From assembly GCF_017696085.1 (NCBI RefSeq), contig NZ_JAAORH010000001.1, positions 434,001 to 498,000 on the forward strand: a stretch of 64,000 nucleotides of DNA, in the 5' to 3' direction. This document shows positions 11,397-27,698 of this stretch, one piece after another. Source of the DNA: Prochlorococcus marinus XMU1410. Lineage in GTDB: Bacteria > Cyanobacteriota > Cyanobacteriia > PCC-6307 > Cyanobiaceae. How positions within the stretch are numbered: the first letter of the stretch is position 1; each line of letters starts with the position of its first letter. The notes under the pieces are model-generated. The model saw nothing but the letters and a program-made list of their open reading frames with translations, did not search any database and was not told the DNA's origin. Both the position numbers and the translations under genes were made by a program.

Positions 11397-11459
11397 AACA
11401 TTACTTTTAAAGAATTTGGTTAGGTGTGAGGATGTAAGATAAATAAAAATAATTTCTTG

Positions 11460-12047
11460 ATGGCAAATCTAAATCAGCCCCCAAGCAGGGTTACCCCCAA
11501 CTTATTGCACATACTAAATGCTTTCACTGATAGCTCAAATACAATAATAAACACTATTGTTGAATTGAACTCTAATACCATAAATAAATATGAATTAATT
11601 ACAGAAACGGGCCATCTTAAACTTGATAGGGTAGGTTATTCATCACTTGCGTATCCTTTTGCTTATGGATGTATTCCTAGGACATGGGATGAAGATGGAG
11701 ATCCACTTGATGTAGAAATTGTTGGAGTAACTGAGCCATTGATACCCGGATCTATTGTAGAAGCAAGGATTATTGGGGTCATGAAATTTGATGATGGTGG
11801 AGAGGTCGATGATAAGGTAATAGCGGTTCTCGCGGATGATAAAAGAATGGATCATATCTCAAGTTATGAAGACCTTGGAGATCATTGGTTAAAAGAAACA
11901 AAGTATTATTGGGAGCACTACAAAGATCTAAAAAAACCAGGAACATGTACTGTAAATGGTTTTTTTGGGATAGAAGAAGCTGTTAAAGTGATTAAAGATT
12001 GTGAAGAGAGATATAAAAAAGAAATTGATCCTAAATTAGTAAATTAA
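11460..12047 (+). CDS. Family I inorganic pyrophosphatase, active site intact
   Basis: Hydrolyses pyrophosphate to phosphate, pulling biosynthetic reactions forward. The 195-residue protein (ATG at 11460, preceded immediately by a TTG) retains the metal-binding motif DEDGDPLDV (equivalent to Asp65, Asp67 and Asp70 of E. coli), NKYELITETGHLKLDRV with the Lys/Glu/Arg residues, LAYPFAYG tyrosines, DDKVIAVL, and EHYKDLKKPG (Tyr141-Lys142). It has an extra N-terminal segment of about 30 residues. It is clearly different from the second pyrophosphatase at 26791, which resembles the usual cyanobacterial enzyme but lacks key residues. This copy is probably the working enzyme; that is inference. Confidence 0.93.
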   Translation: MANLNQPPSRVTPNLLHILNAFTDSSNTIINTIVELNSNTINKYELITETGHLKLDRVGYSSLAYPFAYGCIPRTWDEDGDPLDVEIVGVTEPLIPGSIVEARIIGVMKFDDGGEVDDKVIAVLADDKRMDHISSYEDLGDHWLKETKYYWEHYKDLKKPGTCTVNGFFGIEEAVKVIKDCEERYKKEIDPKLVN

Positions 12048-12053
12048 CAAATT

Positions 12054-13004
12054 TTATTTTTCTCTAAATTTTTCAAATATTTCGCTTAGTATTTCTTCTG
12101 CACCTTGCTGCTTTAATTTTTTAGCTAGTTCTTTGCCTACTTCTTCGGGATCATTAATATTGCCAATAGATTGATCTTTAATAAGCCTTTTCCCATCAAG
12201 AGATGCAACCATACCAGTAAGGCAAAGTTGTTCATTCTGAATTTTACTATTCACACCTATTGGGACTTGGCATCCACCTTCAAGCTCTCTTAAAAAAGCC
12301 CTTTCTGCTAGACATCTTTGACTGGTGGGTTTATCTTCTAAAATATTTATAATTTCTAAAACTTTTTTATCATCAGATTTACATTCAATGCCTAGTGCTC
12401 CTTGGCCAACGGCATGAAGGGAAATTTCACTTGGGATAATCTGGTGAATTCTTGATTCAAAGCCTAATCTCTTTAAACCAGCGGCCGCGAGAATTATACA
12501 ATCAAATTCTCCTGCATCTAATTTTTCAATTCTTGTAATAACATTTCCCCTTATATCTTTGAAAACAAGATGTGGGTATTTATTTCTTAATTGTGCAAGT
12601 CTTCTTAGAGAGCTTGTTCCAATAATCGAACCTTCAGGTAAGGTTTCTAGTTTATGACAGTCATTTTTTTTGTTTACTACTAAAGCATCTGCAGGATCCT
12701 CCCTTTTTGTAATGCATCCTAATTTAAGGCCATTAGGCAAATTGGTTGGTAAATCTTTCAGAGAATGTACAGCTATATCTGCATGGCCTACGAGCATTTG
12801 TGCTTCAAGTTCTTTTGTAAATAAGCCTTTGTCGCCTATTTTTGCTAAGGCTACATCAAGGATTTTGTCACCTTGAGTTGCCATAGCTTCTATAGATACC
12901 TCTAAATTGGGAATATTCCTTTCTAGTTGATCTTTAACCCATAAAGTTTGAACCATTGCTAGCTTACTTCTTCTACTAGCTATTTTTAGCTTTAAATTAG
13001 TCAT
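12054..13004 (-). CDS. hemC: Porphobilinogen deaminase (hydroxymethylbilane synthase)
   Basis: Polymerises four porphobilinogens into hydroxymethylbilane on a dipyrromethane cofactor. The 316-residue protein has [13 protein letters not shown] at the start, the catalytic Asp in [11 protein letters not shown] near residue 84, [11 protein letters not shown] near 130 and the cofactor-binding Cys245 in [10 protein letters not shown]. Start ATG at 13004. The gene converges on the pyrophosphatase gene with six bases between stops, and lies downstream of the sigma factor gene's convergent neighbourhood on the same strand. Together with hemL and hemH it supplies tetrapyrroles for chlorophyll. Confidence 0.97.
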
Positions 13005-13101
13005 TAAATATTATTTAGAGTTTGAATTAAAAATTAAGTCGAATCTATCTTAAGCTATTATTTTGCCAGTTTTTAAAGCTGAATATTATATTTAACTTTT
13101 T

Positions 13102-14286
13102 TTATTTTATATATTCTTTTAAAACCCCATTTCGATTTGGATGTCTAAGTTTTCTTAGGGCTTTTGCCTCTATTTGTCTAATTCTTTCTCTCGTCACATC
13201 AAAAATCTGGCCAATTTCTTCAAGAGTTTTCATTCTTCCATCATCAATTCCATATCTCAATCTGAGAACATCTCTTTCTCTTGGACTAAGAGTGGCTAAT
13301 ACTCCTTCCAAATCTTCTCTTAGTAAAGTTTTAGAAACATCTTGCTCTGGATTTTCTATATCAGCCTCTATAAAGTCTCCTAGTCTTGAGTCTTCTTCTT
13401 TCCCTATTGGAGTTTCTAAAGAAATAGGAAGTTGCGCACTTTTAGCTATAAATCTTAATTTTTCGATTGTCATTTCCATACTCTCTGCAATTTCTTCTTC
13501 ACTAGGTTTCCTGCCAAATTCTTGGCTAAGAACTTTTGTGGTTTTTTTAATTCTGGATATTGTCTCGTATAAGTGAACTGGCAATCTAATAGTTCTACTT
13601 TGATCCGCAATTGCTCTTGTAATAGCTTGGCGAATCCACCAAGTTGCATATGTAGAGAACTTATAACCTTTTTCATGGTCGAATTTTTCGGCTGCCCTAA
13701 TTAAACCCAAACTTCCTTCTTGGATTAAATCTTGAAATGATAAACCTCTGTTCATATATTTTTTAGCAATGGAAACAACTAATCTTAAATTTGATTGAAC
13801 CATTTTTTCTTTAGCTCTGCGCCCTAAGAGAAGTCTTCTTCTAAATTTAGGAAGAGGCATATCTATTAACTCGGCCCATTCTCTTACCGATGGGAAATGC
13901 CCTTTTTCTGACTCATATTGAGTTGCTAGCTCTTCTAATTGGAGTAAGTCAGCAATTTTTCTTGCAAGCTCAATTTCTTCATCTGGTCTTAAAAGTCTAA
14001 TTCTTCCAATTTCTTGGAGATAAACTCTTATTGAATCTTCAGTGTAGATACCTTTTGGCCCAAGCTTTATATTCCCGAGCCCTTTATCCTCTTCTTCAGA
14101 ATCACTAAATTCATTATTGTTATTTTCAATATTGCTTTCGTTTAACTTAGCAGATGTCTGTAAAGTTTGATTATTTTTATTACTATCTTCTTCAACTACT
14201 GTTTCTAAATTTGTATTAATTTTTTTATTGATCTTTTTTTTTGAACTAGGCTTGGAATTCTTTGATTCTGCTGCGACTGGACACAT
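13102..14286 (-). CDS. rpoD: Principal RNA polymerase sigma factor (group 1 sigma-70)
   Basis: The 394-residue protein has every sigma-70 region in order: region 1.2 ([20 protein letters not shown], about 95-125), region 2 ([21 protein letters not shown], then [14 protein letters not shown] for -10 recognition, about 165-235), region 3, and region 4 ([21 protein letters not shown] near 355-375) for the -35 element. The N-terminus is a Lys/Asn/Ser-rich acidic extension of about 85 residues. The complete region 2.4 helix and the length favour the housekeeping factor (SigA type), but some cyanobacterial group 2 factors look similar. Start ATG at 14286, preceded by a good purine-rich AGGAG ribosome site. 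Confidence 0.92.
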
Positions 14287-14607
14287 AATTGACTCCTTTC
14301 TACGGTGAATTTAACTAGATAAAATTTTATTTAGGGCTAATTTGAACATTTAGTAGTAAAGTCCCCTTAATGTTTAAAAAACTTTTTCACAAAATGAGAA
14401 TAAGAAAAGTTTTCTAAATTGTTGAAAAATTTAAATAGTGCTATAGATTACCTAAAGTAAAAAGTCTTGGGATTTCTCAGACAGGCAGATCATTTTTGAA
14501 TTTTCAGTCAATGATCAGAGCTTCATGTCTCCCTTAAGAGCAGGATACTTACAATGTGCAAAAAACACTTTGTGGAATGTTCAACAATCCAATACTAAGA
14601 AAAAGTT
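14287..14607. other. Intergenic region between rpoD and priA, with inverted repeats
   Basis: These 321 bases separate divergent genes and must hold both promoters. I see no convincing protein-coding frame. Two inverted repeats stand out: GATCATT at 14488-14494 paired with AATGATC at 14510-14516, and ACAATGTG paired with CACTTTGT (one mismatch) around 14552-14575, just before priA. The unusual length for this compact genome suggests a long 5' leader or a small RNA, but nothing identifies one. No tRNA is present. Confidence 0.4.
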
Positions 14608-16884
14608 TTGAAGCCGGCAAGTAATCAGTTATTAAATATCTCCTATAAATTGGAAATTTTGCTTGATATAGGTAGTAGTAATGAAAGCTTTTACTATTTA
14701 GATGGAAATAATCTTGGAGCAGAAGTTGGAGATATTGTAGGTGTGAGACTAAGGGGGAGATTATTGAATGGGTTGGTGATCTCCAAAAAAGACTTTTCGA
14801 CAATCAATAATGATGAATCAAATATTACTGGAGGAAAAAGTATAAGATATTTGTCTGTTGAAAGTATTTTGCAGAAAAAAATAATTGATGAATCTTGGAG
14901 AGAATTGATGGACTCCCTAGCCTCTTTTTATATGGTTAGTAATTTAAAAATGTTTAAAACTGCATTTCCTCCTGGCTGGATTGGTAAATATAAAAAATTC
15001 TCTAAAGGTTTAAAAGATCAAATATGGATTGAAACTAAAAAAGAATTTGATATTAAGAAAAATAGATTAACCAAAAAAGAATTTTTTTTAATGGATACTT
15101 TATCTAAAAAAGGTAATTGGCAAAGTGAATTAATAAAGTCTGGTTTTAATTACACTCTAATTAAATCAATGGTCAGTAAAAATTATCTTGCTAAATCTAA
15201 AAGAAAAAAAAATATAAATAGTAAATTAAATTCCTTTTTAAAAGATCATATCGCAACGAAAAAACCAAATCTTACAAATGAGCAAAAAATTGCATTTCAA
15301 GAATTTCAAACAATGAAACCAGGAGATGCATTACTTCTTTGGGGCGAAACAGGTTCAGGTAAAACAGAAGTGTATATTAGAATTGCTGAAGATCAATTTC
15401 TTAAGAAAAAAAGTTGTTTGATACTAGCCCCAGAAATTGGATTAATTCCTCAACTTATTGATAGGTTTAGTAGGCGATTTAATAATGTCGTTTACGAATA
15501 TCATAGTAATTGTTCTCCGGATCATAGAACTTTAGTTTGGAAGAAAATTATTAATGCTAATGAACCTTTAATAGTAATAGGTACAAGGTCGGCAGTTTTT
15601 CTTCCAATCAAAAATCTGGGATTAATAATAATGGATGAAGAACATGATGTTTCTTATAAGCAAGATAGTCCTATGCCTTGCTATGACGCTAGAGAGATTG
15701 CTATTGAAATAGTAAAAAGGAATTCTGCAAAGTTAATTTTTGGGAGTGCAACCCCATCAATGAAGACTTGGAAAAAGTGTATTTTTGAAAGGAATTTTAA
15801 ATTGGTAAGAATGATTCAAAGGATATCCAGTAATGAGACTCCTGAAATAAAAATTATTGATATGCGGGATGAGTTCAAAAAGGGAAATATGAAAATTTTT
15901 TCCAATGAATTATTACAATTGCTTCCTCAACTACACTTAAAAAAAGAGCAAGCAATAATTTTGATCCCTAGGAGGGGGCATAGTGGATTTTTAAGTTGTA
16001 GAAATTGCGGATATTTAATAAATTGCCCCAACTGTGACGTTCCTTTATCAGTTCATCTCGGATCACAAGGAAAAAAATGGTTAAGGTGTCATTGGTGTGA
16101 TCATAAATCAAGATTGATCAATTGTTGCCCAGATTGTCATTCAACTGCTTTCAAACCTTTTGGAATTGGTACGCAAAGGGTAATAGAGTTTTTAAATGAA
16201 GAATTTCCTGACTTAAGAGTACTTCGCTTTGATAGAGATACAACTTCAGGAAAGGATGGTCATAGAGATATTCTTTCAAAGTTTTCTAAAGGTGATGCTG
16301 ATATTCTTGTCGGTACTCAGATGTTGGCAAAAGGTATTGACATCCCCAATATTACTCTTTCAGTAGTTATTGCAGCAGATGGATTACTTCATCGCCCAGA
16401 TATTTCAGCAGAAGAAAAATCATTACAATTGTTTTTGCAAGTAGCAGGAAGGGCCGGCAGGGCACAAAAAAAAGGGAAAGTAATTTTTCAAACATATAAA
16501 CCTAACCACCCGGTGATTTCGTATCTTCAAAAAAGAGATTATGAAAGATTCTTAATTGAAAACTCGAGATTGAGAAAGAATGCTAATTTATTTCCATTTT
16601 GCACAATTTGCCTTCTTAAATTATCAGGTGAAAATTATGAATTAACTGAGTCAACTGCAATAAAATTAGCAAAATACCTAGTCAGTTTTTGTAAGAAAAA
16701 GAACTGGAAATTAATTGGTCCTGCCCCTAGTTTAATAGCTAAAGTCGGTAAAAAATTTAGATGGCAGATATTAATACATGGTCCTGAAGGAACAAAGATA
16801 CCTTTACCTGATAGATCAATATTATGGAAACTTATACCAAAAAATGTTTTTTTAACAATAGATGTTAATCCAGCAGAATTGTAA
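14608..16884 (+). CDS. priA: Primosomal replication restart helicase PriA
   Basis: A 3'-5' DNA helicase that reloads the replisome at stalled forks. The 758-residue protein contains the Walker A GETGSGKTEVY near residue 250, the Walker B DEEHD near 347, LIFGSATPS, and the zinc-binding Cys array (CRNCGYLINCPNCD, CHWCDHKSRLINCCPDC) near 470-515. The helicase C-terminal half has GTQMLAKGID and QVAGRAGRA. The start is TTG at 14608, giving MKPASNQLLNISY. The stop abuts the convergent DUF3153 gene with no gap. Length and motifs are complete. Confidence 0.96.
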   Translation: MKPASNQLLNISYKLEILLDIGSSNESFYYLDGNNLGAEVGDIVGVRLRGRLLNGLVISKKDFSTINNDESNITGGKSIRYLSVESILQKKIIDESWRELMDSLASFYMVSNLKMFKTAFPPGWIGKYKKFSKGLKDQIWIETKKEFDIKKNRLTKKEFFLMDTLSKKGNWQSELIKSGFNYTLIKSMVSKNYLAKSKRKKNINSKLNSFLKDHIATKKPNLTNEQKIAFQEFQTMKPGDALLLWGETGSGKTEVYIRIAEDQFLKKKSCLILAPEIGLIPQLIDRFSRRFNNVVYEYHSNCSPDHRTLVWKKIINANEPLIVIGTRSAVFLPIKNLGLIIMDEEHDVSYKQDSPMPCYDAREIAIEIVKRNSAKLIFGSATPSMKTWKKCIFERNFKLVRMIQRISSNETPEIKIIDMRDEFKKGNMKIFSNELLQLLPQLHLKKEQAIILIPRRGHSGFLSCRNCGYLINCPNCDVPLSVHLGSQGKKWLRCHWCDHKSRLINCCPDCHSTAFKPFGIGTQRVIEFLNEEFPDLRVLRFDRDTTSGKDGHRDILSKFSKGDADILVGTQMLAKGIDIPNITLSVVIAADGLLHRPDISAEEKSLQLFLQVAGRAGRAQKKGKVIFQTYKPNHPVISYLQKRDYERFLIENSRLRKNANLFPFCTICLLKLSGENYELTESTAIKLAKYLVSFCKKKNWKLIGPAPSLIAKVGKKFRWQILIHGPEGTKIPLPDRSILWKLIPKNVFLTIDVNPAEL

Positions 16885-17994
16885 TTACTTTGATGGAAGT
16901 TGAGGTAAATCTGAACCTAGTTTAAATCTATAGAATCTTAATAAATAGGCTAAAATTATAATAATTAAAATAATAGATATCCCAATCAAGAGTTTGTTAA
17001 GGCTCCAGAAAGAAAATTCAAGACTATTTATCTGCCCTTGATTTAAATCCCAAATTATTAGATTTTTTGTGATTTCTAAATTTGAATTATTTTTATTGGT
17101 AAGGATAGCTTTATTGGGGTGAATAATTTTGAAAATGAGTTCTAAATTATCAATGCCTTTAATAGAATTTAGATCCAAATCTAACCTGTAAAAGTATTTT
17201 TTAAAAAAAATGAAGTTTTTTTGAGCAGTATTAATTTCTATATTTGTTGATTCTCCCGCTAACTCTCCAGCTGTATTTTGGGTGATTTTAAGAACTTGCT
17301 TTGTATCCTCTAAATTGAGATTTTTATGTTTCAAAGAAAAGGTTGATTCGTCTTGTTCAATTTCTGCGTCAGGAAAAATATCTTTCATCTTCTCTTCAAA
17401 TTTTAATTGCCAAGGAAATTTCTTTATGTATTTACTCTCTATCACTAAATTATTAGTTATTGAATCAAGTTCACTAAGATCAAGGGTATCCTCAATTTTT
17501 ACGCAGCCACTTAAAAGTGGAATTAATAATATTAGTATTAAAAAAATGATCAGTGAAAAGCCTTTCTGAAAGGGTTTTGTTTCACCAGTAGGTGTCTCAG
17601 TTACATTAATAAATTTTTTTTTCTTCAATACTTCTCTTTTTTTGCGCAGTGAGTCAAGAGATTTTTTATTGAGTGATGGGTCGCTTTCAAACTGTACGTT
17701 CCAATTTTCTGGCTTTTTAATGTCAGGAGAGTCTATAACTTCCATCAAATATATTGCATTTTCTCTCGTCTTATTATCGTAAGATTTTAGAAGTTCTTTA
17801 CAAAACCTTTTAGCCTCCTCCCTTTTATTGATACCACATAGAGCAGTAATTAAGATTGTTCTTAAATTTACTCCCTCTTTGCTTGATAAAGGAAATGATT
17901 CGATTATGGGCAAAAGAAATTTAATGCAATAATGATACTCACCTTTAGCTAAAGCAAGTTCTACTTTTTCTAAAACTTGCTCATAAGTTTTCAT
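16885..17994 (-). CDS. DUF3153-type membrane protein fused to an N-terminal helical (TPR-like) domain
   Basis: A 369-residue protein with three parts. Residues 1-90 are helical with TPR-like spacing (ALAKGEYHYCIKFLLPIIESFP). Residues about 146-162 form a hydrophobic segment ending LLSGCVKIEDTLDL, which looks like an internal copy of the lipoprotein signal that begins stand-alone DUF3153 proteins. Residues 165-330 are the DUF3153-like extracytoplasmic domain, and a second membrane helix (ISIILIIIILAYLL) follows near 335-350. The arrangement suggests a fusion of a cytosolic helical protein with a former lipoprotein, now anchored by two helices. Function unknown. Four bases separate it from argB on the same strand. 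Confidence 0.72.
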   Translation of the reverse strand: MKTYEQVLEKVELALAKGEYHYCIKFLLPIIESFPLSSKEGVNLRTILITALCGINKREEAKRFCKELLKSYDNKTRENAIYLMEVIDSPDIKKPENWNVQFESDPSLNKKSLDSLRKKREVLKKKKFINVTETPTGETKPFQKGFSLIIFLILILLIPLLSGCVKIEDTLDLSELDSITNNLVIESKYIKKFPWQLKFEEKMKDIFPDAEIEQDESTFSLKHKNLNLEDTKQVLKITQNTAGELAGESTNIEINTAQKNFIFFKKYFYRLDLDLNSIKGIDNLELIFKIIHPNKAILTNKNNSNLEITKNLIIWDLNQGQINSLEFSFWSLNKLLIGISIILIIIILAYLLRFYRFKLGSDLPQLPSK

Positions 17995-17997
17995 GGG

Positions 17998-18849
17998 TTA
18001 GGCGACTATCATTGTACCTATTCCGGAATTTGTAAAAATCTCAAGAAGTAATGAATGTTCTATTCTTCCATCAATTATGTGAGCTGCTTTGACTCCTTGG
18101 GCTAAAGCTCTTATACAGCATTCTGTCTTTGGAATCATACCTTCAGTCACAATTTTTTTATCAATTAAATCTCTTGCCTGTTTGAGATTAGTTTTTTCAA
18201 CAAGACTATTTTTGTTATCTTTTTCTTTTAAAATCCCTTGAGTATCAGTAAGAAGAATAAGTTTTTCTGCATTTATAGCAGCAGCAATTTCTCCAGCAAC
18301 AAAATCTGCATTAATGTTATGGGAAATACCCTCCAAGGTTGATCCAATGCTAGAAATAATTGGGATGTATCCTTTAGAAATAAGAGGATCTAATATTTCA
18401 GGATTGATTTTTGTAACCTCTCCCACTAACCCATGACTCCCATCTCCTAGTTCTCTAGATTGAATTAAGTTGCCATCAAGACCTGATATCCCCACGGCTA
18501 AAGATCCAGTTTTATTAATCCCTTTTACAATTTGTTTGTTAACTCTACCCATTAGAACCATCTCGACAATTTCCATTGTTTTTTGATCAGTAATTCTTAA
18601 TCCATTTTCGAATTTAGGAGATATTTCTAATTTCTTTAACCAATTATTAATCTCTGGTCCACCTCCATGAATTACTATCGGACAAACCCCAACGGTTGAT
18701 AAAAGTGCAATGTCTCTAAAAAAAGCATTTTTTAAATTATCATTCTCCATAACAGAACCACCATACTTTATAACAATTTTTCTACCTGAGAAACTTTGTA
18801 TATATGGAAGTGCTTCGCTTAATATTGATACTCTTTGAGAATCATTCAT
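17998..18849 (-). CDS. argB: Acetylglutamate kinase
   Basis: Phosphorylates N-acetylglutamate, the controlled step of arginine synthesis and the target of PII regulation in cyanobacteria. The 283-residue protein shows KYGGSVMEN near residue 28, [12 protein letters not shown] near 60 for substrate binding, and [15 protein letters not shown] near 180. The C-terminal region retains [11 protein letters not shown], part of the nucleotide and arginine-binding surface. Start ATG at 18849. It is transcribed with the DUF3153 protein downstream. Confidence 0.97.
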
Positions 18850-18913
18850 TATTAAAATTCATTAAAACTTGATTGAATTTAGAAATTAGGTTTTTACAAA
18901 TATATCCTTATAT

Positions 18914-19444
18914 TCAATAAAAGAGAATAAAATCAAATTCTTTTTTATTATCGACGATAATAAATTCTGATTCAAGACCTTTGACAAAAAATCTATTTAA
19001 TCTTTCTTGTTTTTCAATCCATTTTTCTAAAGGGACAGCGTTTAATTCGAAACGCATTCTGAGACCATTTTTTTCTTCCTTTGTAATTTCCTCTATTTCT
19101 TTTAATTGAGGGGGGTTATCTTCGTCCCACAAATTTAAAGATTCTAATGACGATTCAAGATGAGCTTTTATCCCATACCTCCATCTTGTAACATCTTTAA
19201 CTAATGCTGTTAGTTCTTTTGGTCTATTAAATTTATTTGTCGCAAAATTTGTCTTGTCAAATAACTCTACAGGAGGTATTTCGGAAGTCTTTAAGCCTAA
19301 GCCAATTAGGAAAATAGGTACTCCATAAAAAAAAGTAGGTACACTTAAATTCACTGAGTCTGTAAAATAAGCAGTCATTCCAACAAAAGCTAATATACCC
19401 CCAGCGGTTACGATTAAGTTTCCAGGCGATAAGTATTTCTTCAT
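18914..19444 (-). CDS. DUF2854 membrane protein
   Basis: A 176-residue protein with two N-terminal membrane helices (LIVTAGGILAFVGMTAYF at about 9-27 and VPTFFYGVPIFLIGLGL at about 35-51), then a soluble domain containing TRWRYGIKAHLESSLESL near 85-105 and a C-terminal β-rich end. This matches the DUF2854 family found in cyanobacteria and plastids, whose role is unknown. It is upstream of argB on the same strand and divergent from a 60-residue gene. Confidence 0.8.
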   Translation of the reverse strand: MKKYLSPGNLIVTAGGILAFVGMTAYFTDSVNLSVPTFFYGVPIFLIGLGLKTSEIPPVELFDKTNFATNKFNRPKELTALVKDVTRWRYGIKAHLESSLESLNLWDEDNPPQLKEIEEITKEEKNGLRMRFELNAVPLEKWIEKQERLNRFFVKGLESEFIIVDNKKEFDFILFY

Positions 19445-19486
19445 TTTGATTTAGTAGAATGAGTTTTAAATAGGCTAACAAGTATT

Positions 19487-19669
19487 GTGCAAGATCCTAA
19501 TACTGCAAATCGAGGAGATTTGATTTTTAAACTTGATCAAGATAGAGCATGGCTACTAGAAAATCTTGATAAGGGTAAATGGCCAGAAATCAGAAGCGAA
19601 CTTGCTGCGCTTGAAAGAAAAATAAGCAAACTAATTATAAGTGTTCAAGAAAATAATGTTGATATTTGA
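19487..19669 (+). CDS. Small conserved hypothetical protein
   Basis: A 60-residue protein starting with GTG at 19487 (MQDPNTANRGD). It is all helical in appearance: FKLDQDRAWLLENLDKGKW then EIRSELAALERKISKLI, with heptad-like hydrophobic spacing that could form a coiled coil. No membrane span. It is squeezed between the divergent DUF2854 gene and the convergent ssb gene, whose stop lies one base away. Codon use is like neighbours, which supports a real gene. Confidence 0.6.
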   Translation: MQDPNTANRGDLIFKLDQDRAWLLENLDKGKWPEIRSELAALERKISKLIISVQENNVDI

Positions 19670-19670
19670 T

Positions 19671-20096
19671 TTAAAAAGGTATTTCGTCCACTTCAGGTAC
19701 TAAAGGTGAACTATCCCAACTAGATTCTTTGGAGGTTTCTTTATTTTCAAATGCCTCATTATTTTCTGTTTGATCAGACTTAATAAAATCAACTGGCGAT
19801 ATTTGATGAATTTTTGAAGCTGTTAGTTCTGGTTGTTTCTCTTTCGTTCCGTCTTTTCTAGTGACAGAATTCATCTTTAGACGTCCCTCAATAACAATAT
19901 TTTGCCCCTCCTTTAGTTCATTTACCATTTCTTGGGCAATATTTCCCCATCCTATGATCTTGAGATCTCTGGTTGGATCTTCACTACGTAATCCTTTAAA
20001 ATTAACAATCATTTCTGCAATTGGAGTTTGATTTTCTTTGGTATACCTCATTTGGGGAGTGCTATTAATGACCGCCTGAATTAAACAATGATTCAT
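19671..20096 (-). CDS. ssb: Single-stranded DNA-binding protein
   Basis: An OB-fold protein of 141 residues (N-terminal fold, about 1-105) followed by a disordered acidic tail. Visible elements are the initial β-strand NHCLIQAVINSTPQMRYT, LKIIGWGNIAQEM and VIEGRLKMNSVTRKDGT. The tail ends DEIPF, the expected acidic tip that recruits repair and replication proteins (DDDIPF in E. coli). The N-terminal region is divergent from E. coli SSB but typical of cyanobacterial copies. It is divergent from cobK. Confidence 0.9.
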   Translation of the reverse strand: MNHCLIQAVINSTPQMRYTKENQTPIAEMIVNFKGLRSEDPTRDLKIIGWGNIAQEMVNELKEGQNIVIEGRLKMNSVTRKDGTKEKQPELTASKIHQISPVDFIKSDQTENNEAFENKETSKESSWDSSPLVPEVDEIPF

Positions 20097-20124
20097 TACT
20101 TACTATTTAATTAAAGACATACTG

Positions 20125-20922
20125 ATGCAGAATCAAGGAAATTGCTACAAAAATGTTTGGATCCTATCAGGAACTTCGGATGGACCTGTAATAGCTAATA
20201 GGCTTCTTGAACTTAATTATTCAGTCTTTGCAAGTGTTTTAACTTATAAAGCAGGGCAAGCTTATATTGAAAATCCAAAGTTACATATCATTACGGGGAA
20301 ATTAAATAATAAATATCAAATAATCAATTTCATAAATAAAAATAAAATCACATGCGTTGTCGATGCTACGCATCCGTTTGCCGTAATAATTTCTAAAAAT
20401 CTTAATAATGCATGTAAAGAAATTAATACACCTCTTTTACTATTTGAGAGGAACTCTCTAATAAATAACACTAATAATTTTTTTTATATTGATCATTTAA
20501 AGGATATAAATAATGTTGAGATAGAAAATAAGAATATTCTTCTCGCAATAGGATCAAGATTCCTTAACGATACAGCTAATTATTATATGAATTGTAAAGC
20601 AAATGTATTTACAAGGGTACTTCCAACTTATGAAAGTATAACTAAAGCTTTTGGATCATGTATTAAAAATTCAAACATAGCGATACTTGAACCGAGTAAA
20701 AATAATAAAAGCATTTTAGAAAAAAAACTTTGTGATTTTTGGGAGATAGATTATGTCCTATGCAGAGAATCTGGAAGTTATTCTCAGAAAAACTGGGAGA
20801 GTATAGTTTCTAGAAGTAAGATGAAGTTATTTTTGGTTAAAAGGCCGAAAGTTAAAAATGATTATTCTTACTCTTTTGATCAATATCACAATTTGATAAA
20901 TCACATAATTAAAAAATATTGA
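20125..20922 (+). CDS. cobK: Precorrin-6A reductase
   Basis: NADPH-dependent reductase in the corrin ring pathway to (pseudo)cobalamin. The 265-residue protein opens with a dinucleotide-binding segment WILSGTSDGPVIANRLLE and contains VDATHPFAVIISKNL near residue 80, both typical of the CobK/CbiJ family. Identity is inferred from these motifs; the C-terminal half is less conserved. It lies 13 bases before cutA on the same strand. cobO lies elsewhere in the window. Confidence 0.85.
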   Translation: MQNQGNCYKNVWILSGTSDGPVIANRLLELNYSVFASVLTYKAGQAYIENPKLHIITGKLNNKYQIINFINKNKITCVVDATHPFAVIISKNLNNACKEINTPLLLFERNSLINNTNNFFYIDHLKDINNVEIENKNILLAIGSRFLNDTANYYMNCKANVFTRVLPTYESITKAFGSCIKNSNIAILEPSKNNKSILEKKLCDFWEIDYVLCRESGSYSQKNWESIVSRSKMKLFLVKRPKVKNDYSYSFDQYHNLINHIIKKY

Positions 20923-20935
20923 TATTTAATTCATT

Positions 20936-21241
20936 ATGGAAGTATTAGTAATGATCACAACTGAATCAAGTAACGCAAATGCTTTGCGAATGGCCAAATT
21001 ACTAATACAAAATAAACTTGCAGCTTGTGTTTCGATAAAGCAAATTTTTTCAATTTATAAGTGGGATGATGATATTGAAGAGAATAAAGAGTTTGAAATT
21101 ACAATAAAAAGTAAACTAGAATTTAAAGATTATTTAATTGAATTCTTAAATAAAAATTCAACATATGATGTCCCTCAAATTATTTACAAAAAATACCATG
21201 CTGAGATGAAATATTATGATTGGTTGAATAAGACTATTTGA
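20936..21241 (+). CDS. cutA: CutA-type divalent ion tolerance protein
   Basis: A 101-residue trimeric signalling-like fold. Landmarks are the N-terminal LVMITTESSNANALRMAKLLIQ, the LAACVSI strand near residue 31, the IYKWDDDIEE segment near 42 and VPQIIYK near the end. The family is implicated in tolerance to copper and other divalent ions, though its biochemical action is unknown. It follows cobK closely on the same strand and is convergent with the PfkB kinase gene. Confidence 0.93.
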   Translation: MEVLVMITTESSNANALRMAKLLIQNKLAACVSIKQIFSIYKWDDDIEENKEFEITIKSKLEFKDYLIEFLNKNSTYDVPQIIYKKYHAEMKYYDWLNKTI

Positions 21242-21247
21242 TTAAAT

Positions 21248-22249
21248 TTATTTTATTAACTCTTTAAGATCAATATCTGATCTAGATCCTAATTGCGTAA
21301 TTATTTGTCCCGCACAAATTGAAGCTATCTCTCCGCACTTTTTAAGGGAACATTTGTTTATTAATCCATGGATAAATCCTCCCGCATAGATATCTCCCGC
21401 TCCTGTAGTATCAATAATCTTGCCTTTCGTTATTGACTCAATTATTTCAAAATTACTTTTGTTTACGATCAGAGAACCATTGCTTCCAAGAGTTACTATA
21501 ACTAATTCACATAAGGAAGATAGGTCTTCTTGGCAGCTTGCTAATTTATCATTTTTAAATAGACTTAGCACCTCAGATTCATTACAAAAAACAATATCTA
21601 CATATTCATAAATTAATTCCAAGAAACTCTCACGATGTCTATCTACACAAAATGAATCAGACAAAGAAAGGATTATTTTAGTATTAGATTGTTTTGCAAT
21701 TTGGGCGGCTTTAATAAAAGCTTTTTTAGCTAATTCGCTGTCCCATAAATATCCTTCTAAATATAAGTATTTACTTTCCTTAATTACAGTAAAGTCAATG
21801 TCTTTTGGTTCAAACTCTACAGATGCACCTAGGTAAGTGCACATAGTTCTTTGTGCGTCAGGTGTAACCAAAATGATTGAATGAGCTGTTGGAGCACCTT
21901 CAATAGTAGGTGGAGTATTAAATATAGTTTTACTTTTTTTTATATCTTCAGAAAAGAAATTCCCAAATTGATCATTTTTCACTCTTCCTATAAACTGCAC
22001 ATGATTGCCTAATTCTGCTAAAGAAACAACGGTATTTGCTGAGGACCCACCTGAAATTTGTTTGATTACTTTGCAATTTTCTAACAATCTCTGAGATTCA
22101 TCAGAATTAATTAGATTCATTGATCCTTTATCCAGATTATTTATCTCAAGAAACTCATCTTCAATATTTACAATAATATCTACTATTGCGTTACCCAGAC
22201 CAATGAGATCAACTTTTTTATGTCCAAAATGTCTAAAGGATTCCTTCAT
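21248..22249 (-). CDS. PfkB-family sugar/nucleoside kinase (adenosine kinase-like)
   Basis: A 333-residue ribokinase-fold protein with the N-terminal DLIGLGNAIVDI, the SGGSSANTVVSLAELG motif near residue 67 and the C-terminal DTTGAGDIYAGGF near 285, which holds the catalytic Asp and anion hole. The adenosine kinase subfamily often has NAIVDI-type N-termini, so adenosine or a related nucleoside is a reasonable guess, but fructose-type sugars cannot be excluded. It lies 15 bases downstream of purA, another purine gene, which mildly favours the nucleoside reading. Confidence 0.88.
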   Translation of the reverse strand: MKESFRHFGHKKVDLIGLGNAIVDIIVNIEDEFLEINNLDKGSMNLINSDESQRLLENCKVIKQISGGSSANTVVSLAELGNHVQFIGRVKNDQFGNFFSEDIKKSKTIFNTPPTIEGAPTAHSIILVTPDAQRTMCTYLGASVEFEPKDIDFTVIKESKYLYLEGYLWDSELAKKAFIKAAQIAKQSNTKIILSLSDSFCVDRHRESFLELIYEYVDIVFCNESEVLSLFKNDKLASCQEDLSSLCELVIVTLGSNGSLIVNKSNFEIIESITKGKIIDTTGAGDIYAGGFIHGLINKCSLKKCGEIASICAGQIITQLGSRSDIDLKELIK

Positions 22250-22264
22250 TAATTTGGAACTGAA

Positions 22265-23629
<1,365 letters not shown>

Positions 23630-23656
23630 TTACTTTTAAAAAGTAAATGAATTGTA

Positions 23657-24094
23657 TCAACTTTCTCTTAAAACCATTTTTTCAGCAAGAGAAAATTCTT
23701 TGGTTAATCGCTCTTTAAGTTTATCTGGTAAAGGCCTACTTGCAAAGTTTTTGTAATGACCTGCCATAGCATTTAATGCTGTTTGCATTGTAGTAAATGA
23801 TTGCGTTTTATTCACCATCCCTCTATTTCTATATCTGGAAATATAGTCAGTTATGAGTGTAAGAGCCTCACTTCTTACTTCATCTTTATTTGGAGAATCT
23901 TTTGGAGTATCAACAGCTGTTTGTAATGTTTTAACAACTGAAATCGTATCCTTTGTATAGTCACCTGTCATAGAGGTTTTTGCAGCTATGGAAGGGGAAC
24001 TAAATAGTGTAAAAACAACAATCAAGGATATTGCAAAAGATATAGCTTTGGTAAGATTCTTAAAAAATAATTTTGATGTCCATTTCAGTAACAT
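23657..24094 (-). CDS. psb27: Photosystem II assembly protein Psb27
   Basis: A lumenal factor that binds CP43-containing photosystem II assembly intermediates before the oxygen-evolving cluster forms. The 145-residue precursor has a signal peptide (KAISFAISLIVVFTLFSSPSIAA, split here as an observed hydrophobic stretch ending near residue 38) and a four-helix mature domain including GDYTKDTISVVKTLQTAV and DYISRYRNRGMVNK. There is no Cys at the signal cleavage site, so unlike the lipoprotein form known from Synechocystis this copy should be soluble in the lumen. It sits between purA and proS on the minus strand. Confidence 0.92.
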   Translation of the reverse strand: MLLKWTSKLFFKNLTKAISFAISLIVVFTLFSSPSIAAKTSMTGDYTKDTISVVKTLQTAVDTPKDSPNKDEVRSEALTLITDYISRYRNRGMVNKTQSFTTMQTALNAMAGHYKNFASRPLPDKLKERLTKEFSLAEKMVLRES

Positions 24095-24121
24095 AACTTA
24101 GCTCCCAAAAAAAAATAAGCT

Positions 24122-25924
24122 TCAAGACTTTTTATTGTACATTATTTCAGATTCGGAAATAAATGTTTCTAACAATTTATCAGTAATAATTTTAAGCTTA
24201 GTATTATTTTTTCTGCATAAAAGTTCTACTTCTTTATTAATGGAATCTCTGCCAATAATTATCTGAAAAGGAATTCCAATTAATTCCGCATCTTTAAATT
24301 TCACTCCAGCTCTATCGTTTCTATCATCAACAAGAACATCAATTTTATTAATTAAAAAGTTGTTATAGATTTGCTCAGTTAGATCACTTTGAATAGGATC
24401 TTTTAGATTTGTTGGAATAATAATAACTTCAAAAGGAGAAATCTGGATAGGCCAACAAATACCCTTTTGATCATGATTCTGTTCGATAGCCGCTTGAGCT
24501 ATTCTTGTCACTCCTATTCCGTAACAACCCATCCATAAATTTTTTAACTGACCGTCCTTATCAGAGAACTTTGCATTTAATTTTTCACTATATTTCTGAC
24601 CTAGTTGAAAAATATGTCCAATCTCGATACCTTTTTTTTCTTTAAGTTCTTCATCATCATAGATACTTACTTTATCTCCTTTTTTGGCATTCCTGATATC
24701 CCCAATTAGATAGTCTTTCGAATCGAAAGAAAATTCTTGAAAAACTTTATGGAAATTAACTTTATTCCCACCACTTACAAACTTTGAAAGGTCACTTGCA
24801 GAATGGTCAATTATTCTTGTCCATTTTTTTTCCCAATTAGAACTAGCTTTTATAGTTTTATTATCTAAATCTGGCCCTATAAAACCTAAGGGTAAATCAA
24901 CTAGATTTTTTTCGATAGTATTTTTGTCTTCAATCTTTTTAAGATTAAGGAGATTAAAGTGATGAAGTTTATTGATTAAGTTAAAAAGCTTTACTTCATT
25001 AATGTGTTGATCGCCTCTTATACATGCAAGAATTGGGACTTCAAATTTGCCTTCGAACTGGGCAAGGAATATTACTACTTTAATAATCTGACTTGGGTCT
25101 AAATTGTTATTATTGGAAACTTCAAGGATTGTTTTTTGATGAGGCGTTTCCAACCACTCTGCAATATTATCTTTTAGTGGAATAGGTTGAGAGGGTAGAG
25201 AAACAGCTTTTTCGATATTGGCAGCATAAGAACCGCTTTGAGTGAACAAAATGGAATCTTCCCCAGCATCAGCAGTGACCATAAATTCTTTAGATGAAGC
25301 ACCGCCAATTGCTCCACTATCAGCTTCAACCCCTACTGTCTGCAGTCCACAAGATTTAAAAATATTTTCATAAGCATTGCCTACTTTTTCATAGAAAGAA
25401 GCTAGATCGTTTTCTGAAGAATGAAAAGAATAACCATCTTTCATTATGAATTCTCTACTTCTCATCAATCCAAACCTTGGCCTTATTTCATCTCTAAATT
25501 TTGTCTGAATTTGGTAAAAACATTGAGGTAATTGCTTATATGAGTTGATGGTCTCTGAGGCAATACGCGTGATCACCTCTTCGTGAGTTGGTGCTAAACC
25601 AAATTCTTTACCTTGTCTATCTTTGAGATTAAACATTATTCCTTCACCTGCGGTATATCCTTCCCATCTTTCACTTTTTTTCCATAAATCTGCAGGATGA
25701 AGTTGGGGTAATAGTAATTTTGTACAACCAATACTATTAAGTTCTTTCTCTATTATTGCAGATATTTTTTCAATAACTTTAAGCATTAGTGGCATGTATG
25801 CATAAATACCGCTGTTAACTCTGCGAATATACCCAGCTTTTAAGAGTAATTGATGTGAAATAATCTCAGCCTCAGAAGGTGTGTCACGAAGTGTCCCCAG
25901 AGGAAATGAGGTGGTCACGCGCAT
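24122..25924 (-). CDS. proS: Prolyl-tRNA synthetase (bacterial type)
   Basis: Class II synthetase charging tRNA-Pro. The 600-residue length matches bacterial enzymes with an inserted editing domain (about residues 225-385). Motif 1 region begins after RVTTSFPLGTLRDTPSEAE; motif 2 is FRDEIRPRFGLMRSREF near 145; motif 3 is GCYGIGVTR near 465; the C-terminal anticodon-binding domain has DVLVDDRNDRAGVKFKDAEL. Start ATG at 25924. Upstream on the same strand is a possible 31-residue peptide gene. Confidence 0.97.
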   Translation of the reverse strand: MRVTTSFPLGTLRDTPSEAEIISHQLLLKAGYIRRVNSGIYAYMPLMLKVIEKISAIIEKELNSIGCTKLLLPQLHPADLWKKSERWEGYTAGEGIMFNLKDRQGKEFGLAPTHEEVITRIASETINSYKQLPQCFYQIQTKFRDEIRPRFGLMRSREFIMKDGYSFHSSENDLASFYEKVGNAYENIFKSCGLQTVGVEADSGAIGGASSKEFMVTADAGEDSILFTQSGSYAANIEKAVSLPSQPIPLKDNIAEWLETPHQKTILEVSNNNNLDPSQIIKVVIFLAQFEGKFEVPILACIRGDQHINEVKLFNLINKLHHFNLLNLKKIEDKNTIEKNLVDLPLGFIGPDLDNKTIKASSNWEKKWTRIIDHSASDLSKFVSGGNKVNFHKVFQEFSFDSKDYLIGDIRNAKKGDKVSIYDDEELKEKKGIEIGHIFQLGQKYSEKLNAKFSDKDGQLKNLWMGCYGIGVTRIAQAAIEQNHDQKGICWPIQISPFEVIIIPTNLKDPIQSDLTEQIYNNFLINKIDVLVDDRNDRAGVKFKDAELIGIPFQIIIGRDSINKEVELLCRKNNTKLKIITDKLLETFISESEIMYNKKS

Positions 25925-25977
25925 ACAGAAAAATCCTTAGATAATATTTAATTTTATCAATTAAGATGAAAAAATAA

Positions 25978-26073
25978 TTAAAAGTGTCTTGAGTCCCTCA
26001 ACGCAGCTAGTCTAAGAATGTTCTTTCTGCTAACTTCTTCAGTAATGTAGTCCAAACTCTTTAAAAAGTTCAT
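25978..26073 (-). CDS. Candidate 31-residue peptide upstream of proS
   Basis: An uninterrupted minus-strand frame from ATG (26073-26071) to TAA (25980-25978) encodes MNFLKSLDYITEEV followed by SRKNILRLAALRDSRHF. It reads like a genuine amphipathic helical protein rather than random AT-rich sequence (Leu, Arg, Glu pattern, few Asn/Lys runs), and it occupies an otherwise unexplained 175-base gap. No clear Shine-Dalgarno sequence precedes it. It could be a conserved micro-protein or a leader for proS. Short length means the call is tentative. Confidence 0.4.
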   Translation of the reverse strand: MNFLKSLDYITEEVSRKNILRLAALRDSRHF

Positions 26074-26099
26074 TATTACTTAATCATTTTCTTAAGTTT

Positions 26100-26450
26100 A
26101 TGGAAAATATAGATTCCAATATTTCTAGTGAAGAGGAATTAGTAGGTATTGATGAAGTTCAAAAATTCCTAAATAGATCAAGAGCTTCTGTCTATAGGTA
26201 TACAAATACAGATTTAAGAAATCTAAACCCTAGTTTTAATCCTAGAAAATTAAATCCCGAATTTCGGACTGATCAAAAAGATCCTTTAAAATTCCATCCT
26301 AATGAAGTAGCAAGATTTGCAAAAGATATTTTAAGAATAAAGGAAGTAACTGTAGAGGTCTTTAATACACCTTCGTCCGCTGCTCAAAATATACTGGCGC
26401 AAATATTAGACGAACTAAAATCTATTAGGTCTTTGCTAGAAAAAGAATAA
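26100..26450 (+). CDS. Helix-turn-helix-like conserved hypothetical protein
   Basis: A 116-residue protein beginning at ATG 26100. Residues about 15-35 (VGIDEVQKFLNRSRASVYRYTN) resemble an excisionase/MerR-type winged helix in which a helix-turn-helix reads DNA, followed by a Pro/Asn-rich linker and then PNEVARFAKDILRIKEVTVEVF. The C-terminus ends in a helix LAQILDELKSIRSLLEKE that could dimerise. I infer a DNA-binding regulator; no target is visible. It is divergent from proS and upstream of a small membrane protein. Confidence 0.6.
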   Translation: MENIDSNISSEEELVGIDEVQKFLNRSRASVYRYTNTDLRNLNPSFNPRKLNPEFRTDQKDPLKFHPNEVARFAKDILRIKEVTVEVFNTPSSAAQNILAQILDELKSIRSLLEKE

Positions 26451-26546
26451 TTAAAAAGTAACCAATTAATGTTTTGATTTATTGACATTTTGAATGTAGG
26501 ATAATGATGTTTAATTATCTCCTTAATCTTTACCAATTAAGAGTTC

Positions 26547-26801
26547 TTGAGTTACACGAAATCAAAGCAGTTTATTCAAAGTAAATCAAGCGAAGAATCT
26601 TCTCATGGTTCTGCACGAAATGATTTTGAAAGAGATGATGATGACCCCTTAAGTATAAGGAGTTTATCGATAACATCTTTAGGTATCATTTTTGCCTTTT
26701 TGACAATTTTTTTACCTTCAATAAGCATTTTAATTGGCAGACCTTTATCTCAAGGAAACGAGATAATTCATAATCACGATTTTAAAAAAGATGGACCTTA
26801 G
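26547..26801 (+). CDS. Small single-span membrane protein
   Basis: An 84-residue frame starting with TTG at 26547. The N-terminal 50 residues are polar and charged (KSSEESSHGSARNDFERDDD), followed by one hydrophobic helix (LGIIFAFLTIFLPSISILIG) and a short polar tail. I do not recognise the family; similar small anchored proteins occur beside pyrophosphatase genes in marine picocyanobacteria only as far as I can infer. Its last 11 bases overlap the start of the downstream pyrophosphatase gene, so the two are translationally linked. Confidence 0.55.
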   Translation: MSYTKSKQFIQSKSSEESSHGSARNDFERDDDDPLSIRSLSITSLGIIFAFLTIFLPSISILIGRPLSQGNEIIHNHDFKKDGP

Positions 26802-27345
26802 TTCAATACCTCCATCTCCAATGAAGGGAATAGTGAATATTGTTGTTGAAATCCCTGCAGGGAGTAGGAATAAATATGAATATTGCTCTGATGCAGGAAT
26901 AATGGCCCTAGACAGAGTATTACATTCTTCAGTGAGGTATCCTTTTGATTATGGTTTTATCCCAAATACCCTTGCTGAAGATGGAGCTCCCCTTGATGCA
27001 ATGGTGATAATGGACGAACCTACCTTTGCCGGTTGTCTAATAAAAGCTAGACCGATTGGAGTTTTGGATATGCATGATTGTGGTGCATATGATGGAAAAC
27101 TTTTATGTGTGCCTATGGCTAATCCTAGGCAGGCTAACATAGTGAGTATTAATCAAATTGCTCCTAATCAGCTTGAGGATGTTGCAGAATTTTTTAGAAC
27201 AAGTAAAGGACTCGATGGAAGAACAGTTCAAATTGATGGTTGGAGGGATTTTGATGTAGTTGAAAATTTATTGAAAAGTTGTATGCCTCTAAAAAAGAAA
27301 AACTTTAAAATACTTAAGAAATCAAATTTTAGTAAATTAAATTGA
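26791..27345 (+). CDS. ppa: Family I inorganic pyrophosphatase, cyanobacterial type with altered active site
   Basis: This 184-residue protein begins MDLSSIPPSP, as in typical cyanobacterial pyrophosphatases, and keeps EIPAGSRNKYEY, RYPFDYGFIPNTL and KLLCVPMANPR. However, the metal site reads EDGAPLDAM instead of DGDPLD, so the residue equivalent to E. coli Asp67 is Ala, and the TSKGLDG segment replaces SYKNL/HYKDL, losing Tyr141. The equivalent of Glu98 is Cys. Asp65, Asp70, Asp102, Lys104 and Lys142 remain. Activity is therefore probably reduced or changed. A second, intact enzyme is encoded at 11460. The downstream ArsC-like gene overlaps by four bases. Confidence 0.9.
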   Translation: MDLSSIPPSPMKGIVNIVVEIPAGSRNKYEYCSDAGIMALDRVLHSSVRYPFDYGFIPNTLAEDGAPLDAMVIMDEPTFAGCLIKARPIGVLDMHDCGAYDGKLLCVPMANPRQANIVSINQIAPNQLEDVAEFFRTSKGLDGRTVQIDGWRDFDVVENLLKSCMPLKKKNFKILKKSNFSKLN

Positions 27346-27698
27346 AAAAAATAATTTTTTATAGTTATTTAAAATGCTCTACATGCCGAAAAGCTGCAAA
27401 GTGGCTTGAAAGCAAAGATTTTGAATTTCAGTTAATTGATATTGTAAAAGAACCTCCACTTGTTAATTATTTAAATCTAGCCTTAGAACAATACTCTGAT
27501 GATAAGAAAAGGATTTTTAATACAAGAGGTAAAGCCTTTAAAACTCTTGATCTTGATATTGATCGTTTGTCAAAGGAAGAAATTATTCAACTTCTTTTAA
27601 GTGATGGCAAATTAATAAAAAGACCATTTTTGATTTACGAAGGGAAGAAAGTAATATTAGGTTTTAACGAAATTGAATATGCCAAACAATTTATATAA
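27342..27698 (+). CDS. ArsC/Spx-family thioredoxin-fold protein
   Basis: A 118-residue protein with the redox motif KCSTCRKAAKWLE (CxxC near residues 10-13) and the C-terminal LLSDGKLIKRPFLIYEGKKVILGF, matching the ArsC/Spx/YffB family. Family members include arsenate reductases and transcription factors; the CxxC and RPF-like motif favour the YffB/Spx-like branch, which is not proven to reduce arsenate. It starts with TTG at 27342, overlapping the ppa stop, and is followed by lepB after 29 bases. The operon ppa-arsC-like-lepB is suggested by spacing. Confidence 0.85.
   Translation: MKKIIFYSYLKCSTCRKAAKWLESKDFEFQLIDIVKEPPLVNYLNLALEQYSDDKKRIFNTRGKAFKTLDLDIDRLSKEEIIQLLLSDGKLIKRPFLIYEGKKVILGFNEIEYAKQFI

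What the first reader, a model, noticed from the sequence alone, without database searches (positions are those of the whole stretch)
11460..27345. Two family I pyrophosphatases: the intact one is atypical, the typical one has lost catalytic residues
Sequence: the enzyme at 11460 keeps all acidic metal ligands (DGDPLD) and the HYKDL Tyr-Lys pair. The enzyme at 26791, which begins like ordinary cyanobacterial Ppa, has DGAPLD (Asp67 to Ala, E. coli numbering), Ser for Tyr141 and Cys for Glu98. Family knowledge: Asp67 and Tyr141 take part in metal and phosphate binding. Inference: the ancestral enzyme has decayed or acquired another role and been replaced by a divergent second copy. In a streamlined genome a retained damaged enzyme probably still does something. 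I recall reports of weakly active marine picocyanobacterial pyrophosphatases but cannot confirm them here.
Basis: partly seen in the sequence, partly recalled or inferred. Interest (0 to 1): 0.75.

Follow-up and report, generated by a model that had tools for sequence, protein, structure and literature searches.

The report
Conserved disabled pyrophosphatase in Prochlorococcus
The ocean's smallest photosynthetic cells keep, under strong selection, an old pyrophosphate-splitting enzyme that has lost the one residue that starts the reaction, while an enzyme of foreign ancestry appears to have taken over the real work.

Summary
The two proteins are as described. The window is Prochlorococcus. The 11460 copy (A) has every catalytic residue and is the only intact pyrophosphatase found: the genome has exactly two PF00719 genes, no H+-PPase and no DHHA2 family II enzyme. 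The 26791 copy (B) carries Asp67→Ala. This is neither recent nor local. B descends from the ordinary cyanobacterial Ppa (tree). Position 67 is Ala, Ser or Cys in 74 of 75 aligned Cyanobiaceae B proteins, while the other metal and phosphate ligands are mostly kept. All 87 genomes of this genus at least 90% complete have B with Ala/Ser67. Purifying selection on B is as strong as on A (median dN/dS 0.060 and 0.068, 7 genomes). Asp67 corresponds to Asp117, which activates the attacking water; mouse PPA1 D117A had no detectable activity (PMC3633968). Best reading: B is a conserved pseudo-pyrophosphatase that still binds Mg-PPi, or is very slow, with a non-catalytic role. Corrections: Glu98 is not conserved; Tyr141→Ser occurs only in this genus in the sample; B is not decaying; 56 genomes have A without B, three drafts B without A. 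Function is untested.

The parts
26791..27345 (+). B: pseudo-pyrophosphatase, the cyanobacterial Ppa lineage (184 aa)
   Evidence: ORF; PF00719 158 bits; tree
26986..26988 (+). codon GCT = Ala at the E. coli Asp67 (yeast Asp117) position
27202..27204 (+). codon AGT = Ser at the E. coli Tyr141 position; Ser found only in this genus in the sample
27079..27081 (+). codon TGT = Cys at the E. coli Glu98 position; a variable position, not a loss
11460..12047 (+). A: intact family I pyrophosphatase outside the cyanobacterial Ppa clade, the only intact PPase found in the genome (195 aa)
   Evidence: ORF; PF00719 162 bits
11424..11432 (+). GTGTGAGGA in the leader of A, complementary to part of the Yfr1/Yfr10 sRNA motif (motif letters recalled, except UCCU which is named in PMC6778093)
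   Evidence: MED4 ppa (PMM0494) as Yfr1/Yfr10 target, PMC6778093
26100..26450 (+). conserved 116-aa ORF upstream of B, no Pfam or NCBIfam match; part of the conserved locus
   Evidence: found at 73 of 75 B loci
26547..26801 (+). 84-aa ORF overlapping the start of B; found mainly in this genus
27342..27698 (+). ArsC/Spx-like protein overlapping the stop of B
27728..28387 (+). signal peptidase I (lepB)

Best explanation
B is a pseudo-pyrophosphatase. After the ancestor of the Cyanobiaceae gained a second family I enzyme (A), the original Ppa (B) lost Asp67, the residue that activates the attacking water. The Asp, Glu, Lys, Arg and Tyr residues that hold Mg2+ and pyrophosphate were mostly kept, so B most likely still binds Mg-PPi (or a similar diphosphate) but hydrolyses it very slowly or not at all. 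It is kept for a non-catalytic job such as sensing or buffering PPi, or regulating a partner. Shown here: the substitution, its spread, the retained ligands, purifying selection, the near-universal presence of A. Inferred: the order of events, loss of activity (from mouse PPA1 D117A), ligand binding, and the role.
For: Position 67: Ala 59, Ser 14, Cys 1, Asp 1 of 75 B proteins; Asp in 69 of 69 A and 33 of 33 other cyanobacterial sequences. E20, K29, Y51, Y55, D65, D70, D102 and K104 are kept in 75 of 75 B, R43 in 74, E31 and D97 in 73, K142 in 68, Y141 in 59. The Ala/Ser67 DNA pattern occurs in 212 of 214 B-bearing genomes and in 87 of 87 of the genus (tally by hand); the Asp67 pattern falls in a B gene only in G019 (compared by eye). 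Parsimony: 4 changes at 67, Ser at the base of all B except G019, no later return to Asp. Median dN/dS 0.060 for B, 0.068 for A. B stem branch 0.74 against a median end branch of 0.14. The other 13 active-site positions have mean entropy 0.14 against 0.77 for random sets, permutation p 7e-4. Mouse PPA1 D117A: no activity detected (PMC3633968). Asp117 and two metals lower the pKa of the nucleophilic water (PMC11210485). A in 267 of 271 genomes, B in 214 (by hand).
Against: No activity or binding was measured for any B protein. The mutant data are for a eukaryotic enzyme; residual activity of E. coli D67 variants could not be read. In this genus Tyr141 is also lost, so phosphate binding could be weakened. 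Retained ligands partly reflect ancestry and fold. B is more diverged than A across the family (831 of 861 genome pairs), and 57 of 271 genomes do without it. Gene neighbours point to no pyrophosphate function. The AlphaFold job gave a useless model (pLDDT 36).
Confidence: 0.6

Rival explanations
1. B is a slow but real pyrophosphatase, or acts on another phosphoanhydride, with hydroxide at alkaline pH or another residue replacing Asp67; the weak activity is what is selected.
For: Nearly all metal and phosphate ligands are kept; small residues Ala, Ser or Cys at 67. B also has changes fixed against other cyanobacterial Ppa (for example Glu103 to Gly, Lys147 to Gly) that might mark altered specificity, but E. 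coli itself has Ala and Gly at those positions, so they are weak evidence.
Against: Mouse PPA1 D117A showed no activity (PMC3633968); no new acidic residue fixed near position 67 (position 64 is Glu/Asp in B and already Asp in 29 of 32 other cyanobacterial Ppa).
Confidence: 0.25
2. B is a subunit or scaffold that joins A, or another protein, and tunes it, with no ligand of its own.
For: Changes fixed in B away from the catalytic residues; both genes present in most genomes.
Against: A and B differ at positions that I recall as lying in the E. coli hexamer interface: 136 Tyr against Glu, 143 Asp against Ser/Asn/Gly, so mixed hexamers look unlikely; 56 genomes have a PPase of A type and no B (typed by E-value); the ligand site is still held.
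Confidence: 0.12
3. B is a decaying pseudogene left after replacement by A.
For: Catalytic Asp lost; B absent from 57 of 271 genomes; B more diverged than A in 831 of 861 genome pairs.
Against: dN/dS 0.060; open frame of 174 or more codons in 74 of 75 sampled, the other being cut by a contig end; 87 of 87 genomes of the genus keep it.
Confidence: 0.03

Closest known systems
Family I soluble inorganic pyrophosphatase, cyanobacterial Ppa
   Same: B is 51-59% identical to 32 other cyanobacterial Ppa, nested among them; family PF00719; most other active-site ligands kept
   Different: the water-activating Asp67 is Ala, Ser or Cys in 74 of 75; Tyr141 is Ser in this genus
Laboratory mutant PPA1 D117A (mouse), no detectable activity
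   Same: same Asp to Ala change at the corresponding residue (PMC3633968)
   Different: B is a natural, conserved protein; its activity is unmeasured
Bacterial family I Ppa of the Neisseria/Moraxella type, nearest of the sampled outgroups to A
   Same: A is 41% identical to Neisseria Ppa; best PDB chain by sequence is 5tea (its source organism is recalled)
   Different: long branches and few outgroups; the donor of A is not established
Pseudoenzymes in general, e.g. pseudo-orthocaspases in cyanobacteria (PMC6426788, listing and start of abstract seen)
   Same: conserved homolog lacking catalytic residues
   Different: no pseudo-form of a soluble pyrophosphatase was seen in the listings

Membership tests
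Family I inorganic pyrophosphatase (PF00719) | profile match over curated cut-off | tested here: met
   A 162 bits, B 158 bits, cut-off 23.5
Family I inorganic pyrophosphatase (PF00719) | complete DxDPxD catalytic motif (the second Asp activates water) | tested here: not met
   B has DGAPLD; 74 of 75 B proteins lack this Asp. A meets it, 69 of 69
Family I inorganic pyrophosphatase (PF00719) | remaining metal and phosphate ligands (E20, K29, E31, R43, Y51, Y55, D65, D70, D97, D102, K104, Y141, K142; list partly recalled) | tested here: inconclusive
   window B keeps 12 of the 13, losing Y141; family-wide counts
Family I inorganic pyrophosphatase (PF00719) | Mg-dependent PPi hydrolysis | not testable with these tools
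   needs purified protein
NCBIfam inorganic pyrophosphatase equivalogs (NF002317, NF002578) | score above curated cut-off | tested here: not met
   best A 141.6 bits (NF002578, cut-off 246), best B 135.7 bits (NF002317, cut-off 200); neither copy meets them, so not diagnostic
Pseudoenzyme | conserved catalytic residue missing by sequence | tested here: met
Pseudoenzyme | kept by selection rather than decaying | tested here: met
   dN/dS 0.060; 87 of 87 genomes of the genus
Pseudoenzyme | no catalytic activity | not testable with these tools
   only by analogy with mouse D117A
Family I fold | predicted structure matches PPase fold | tested here: inconclusive
   AlphaFold2 from a 5-row alignment, pLDDT 36.2, no fold search run; by sequence residues 8-170 align to solved PPases

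The most novel reading that the evidence does not exclude
The picocyanobacteria turned their ancestral pyrophosphatase into a dedicated pyrophosphate receptor: by removing only the water-activating Asp they kept a protein that captures Mg-PPi without destroying it, to report or buffer the PPi level, while a foreign enzyme does the hydrolysis. This would be a natural, ocean-wide PPi sensor.
Probability: 0.3. Interest if true: 0.82.

Novelty: new variant of a known kind. Interest (0 to 1): 0.6.

Why it matters
Prochlorococcus and marine Synechococcus are among the most abundant photosynthetic cells. A protein that matches the housekeeping pyrophosphatase family throughout much of this group very probably is not a working one, which affects metabolic models and gene annotation. 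Its retention in all 87 genomes of the streamlined genus examined, with one catalytic residue removed and most of the ligand site kept, points to an unknown function around pyrophosphate that can be tested with two purified proteins.

Tried and rejected
Glu98 to Cys as a loss: rejected, the position is variable (31 changes on the tree). Tyr141 to Ser as the defining lesion: rejected, found only in this genus in the sample. Recent decay in one strain: rejected. Phage-borne copies: none of the 10 records hit in each is named a cyanophage; the viral-contig scans, which need a short exact peptide first, confirmed no relative. Another intact PPase in the genome: no H+-PPase, no DHHA2 family II enzyme. 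Gene neighbours as a guide to function: conserved locus but no shared theme. Changes fixed in B at positions 103 and 147: dropped as evidence of altered binding, because E. coli also has small residues there. Link to salt habitat: among 150 genomes of 2 Mb or more, ggpS is present in 62 of 96 with B and 5 of 54 without (one of the five, G351, has no PPase hit at all). The lists were coded by hand and not corrected for kinship, and ggpS was found in only 1 of 87 genomes of the window's genus, so this is only a hint. AlphaFold model: useless, so no fold search was run. Donor of A: not found; outgroups were few with long branches. G019 is an exception in three ways: it keeps Asp67, has Arg43 to Thr, and its B is not at the conserved locus. 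Rfam: nothing in 9500-30000. The closest relevant paper, Gomez-Garcia et al. 2007 (FEBS J 274:3948), is not held and may already mention these substitutions.
Full report
What is there. The window lies in a Prochlorococcus genome: C1:434001-498000 of a 1.63 Mb, 4-contig assembly, whose A protein is 100% identical to that of many named Prochlorococcus records. Two family I pyrophosphatase genes are present: A at 11460-12047 and B at 26791-27345, both on the + strand. PF00719 finds exactly these two in the whole genome. H+-PPase (PF03030) and DHHA2 family II enzymes (PF02833) were not found, while both profiles rang in control genomes.

Which residues matter. I aligned 186 proteins: 69 A, 75 B, 33 Ppa from other cyanobacteria and 9 outgroups. 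One of the 33, C_G416, is from a genome with 8% contamination and falls among the outgroups in the tree; it was grouped with them and left out. B_G238, cut by a contig end, was left out of the trees and; B_G019 was left out only. In E. coli numbering, A has Asp67 in 69 of 69, and other cyanobacteria in 33 of 33. B has Ala in 59, Ser in 14, Cys in 1 and Asp in 1 of 75. E20, K29, Y51, Y55, D65, D70, D102 and K104 are kept in 75 of 75 B proteins; R43 in 74, E31 in 73, D97 in 73, K142 in 68. Y141 is Tyr in 59, Ser in 11, His in 3, Asn in 1, missing in the cut one. The 11 Ser are the 11 full-length B proteins sampled from this genus. Position 98 varies everywhere except A (Gly in 69 of 69), so Cys98 is not a lesion.

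What Asp67 does. The E. coli motif D65-G-D67-P-V-D70 corresponds to yeast D115-N116-D117-P-x-D120 (residues 116 and 117 are named in PMC11210485; the rest is recalled). [quoted passage not shown] PMC3633968 (abstract and passages) made mouse PPA1 D117A, saw equal protein amount, and detected activity only in wild type. The natural Ala67 in B is the same change at the corresponding place.

How old and how widespread. A careful tree of 102 rows puts the 40 B used in one clade (100/100), nested in other cyanobacterial Ppa (sister C_G456, 98/85), on a long stem (0.74). The 20 A used form another clade (100/99) away from cyanobacterial Ppa, next to Neisseria and Moraxella among the few outgroups. 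Branches there are long and the bootstrap had not fully settled, so the donor of A is open, and transfer is the economical reading rather than shown. Of 130 genomes outside the family, 127 have one PPase hit to the A query, G416 and G499 two, G520 none. Gene order fits B being the native gene: the 116-aa ORF at 26100 lies upstream at 73 of 75 B loci, and about 1 kb upstream of ppa in three cyanobacteria outside the family (G432, G453, G511); 11 others fetched with longer flanks did not show it and 19 fetched stretches were too short to tell. Parsimony gives Ser at the base of all B except G019, four changes at position 67 in all, and no later return to Asp; G019, branching first, either kept Asp or regained it.

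Counts in 271 Cyanobiaceae genomes at least 90% complete (tallied by hand, copies typed by E-value and match number): B in 214, A in 267. The four without A are G202, G238 and G389 (B only, all drafts) and G351 (neither). Of the 57 without B, 56 keep a PPase of A type. The genus of the window has B in 87 of 87, one of them cut by a contig end (G238). One genus of 2.3-4.1 Mb genomes (g19) has B in only 4 of 33. So the streamlined genus keeps the disabled gene while many larger genomes have dropped it; three small genomes lack it too (G002, G077, G330, 1.7-1.8 Mb). The Ala/Ser67 DNA pattern occurs in 221 of 271 genomes. Nine of these lack B and are chance hits, of which the backward control shows similar numbers in large genomes. 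That leaves 212 of the 214 B genomes. The two missing are G019 (Asp) and G320 (Cys), as the protein alignment says. The Asp67 pattern hits 16 genomes; only in G019 does the hit lie in a B gene.

Is B decaying? No. Among 7 genomes of the genus, those with both genes fetched for this test, Nei-Gojobori dN/dS has median 0.060 for B and 0.068 for A (21 pairs each, one B pair saturated and dropped). Many dS values exceed 1, so the ratios are rough. Across 42 genomes of the family B is more diverged than A (median identity 73.8 against 83.1; B lower in 831 of 861 pairs), so it is less constrained overall. The 13 other active-site positions are much more constrained than random B columns (mean entropy 0.14 against 0.77, p 7e-4). 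These positions are conserved in PPases generally, so this shows that they are still held, not why.

What else changed in B. Fixed differences from other cyanobacterial Ppa include E103 to Gly, K147 to Gly, K148 to Arg, R130 to Gln and P81 to Ala. E. coli has Ala103 and Gly147, so I draw nothing from those two. No new acidic residue near position 67 was fixed. A and B differ at positions 136 and 143, which I recall as interface positions in the E. coli hexamer, so mixed hexamers look unlikely.

Regulation. A has GTGTGAGGA at 11424-11432, 28-36 bases before its start; it occurs once on the + strand and not on the - strand of the window. It is complementary to part of the Yfr1/Yfr10 motif. PMC6778093 (passages) reports that MED4 ppa, PMM0494, is bound by these sRNAs in its 5' region. 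PMC3142192 (passage) lists the gene as a verified pseudo target; PMC6778093 says that the GFP test could not verify it because its UTR is poorly translated in E. coli. The 8-mer GTGTGAGG is upstream of A in 74 of 80 named close relatives. Allowing near variants, it is found in only 3 of 11 more diverse genus members, 1 of 58 other A, and none of 75 B. I take PMM0494 to be A, without having seen its sequence.

How it probably works. The most economical reading is that gain of A freed B from hydrolysis; B then lost the one residue that starts the reaction and kept the ligand site, so that it binds Mg-PPi and holds it. What that does for the cell is inferred only: sensing, buffering, or regulation of a partner. 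A slow or re-targeted hydrolase is the main rival. In Prochlorococcus the further loss of Tyr141 may mean weaker or altered binding.

What is known. In the searches made I saw no paper that describes this substitution or a pseudo-form of a soluble pyrophosphatase; the library lacks most subscription journals. For most papers I saw listings with the starts of abstracts. Passages were seen in PMC6778093, PMC11210485, PMC9361551, PMC7332688, PMC3142192, PMC3633968 and PMC2916918; in PMC7133116, PMC10311840, PMC8386120 and PMC11857102 the terms were found only in the reference lists.

Noticed in passing
window 26100-26450 (+): 116-aa ORF with no Pfam or NCBIfam match, 69-81% identical outside the genus at nearly all B loci and 50-56% in three other cyanobacteria, upstream of ppa; a conserved unnamed protein.
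   Followed up: partly
L086 (G019, C15:12413-12907): The only B-type protein sampled with Asp67, but Arg43 is Thr and it lies outside the conserved locus, under 2 kb from a contig end; possibly an independent route to the same loss.
   Followed up: partly
window 26547-26801 (+): Fast-evolving 84-aa ORF with one hydrophobic stretch (by eye), overlapping the start of B, found at the genus loci and weakly at three others.
   Followed up: no
window 11424-11432 (+): Yfr1-complementary site in the leader of A, exact 8-mer in 74 of 80 close relatives but in 3 of 11 more diverse genus members.
   Followed up: partly
Cyanobiaceae genomes of 2 Mb or more: Loss of B goes with absence of ggpS, a salt-acclimation gene; suggests loss of B in low-salt lineages, not corrected for kinship.
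   Followed up: partly
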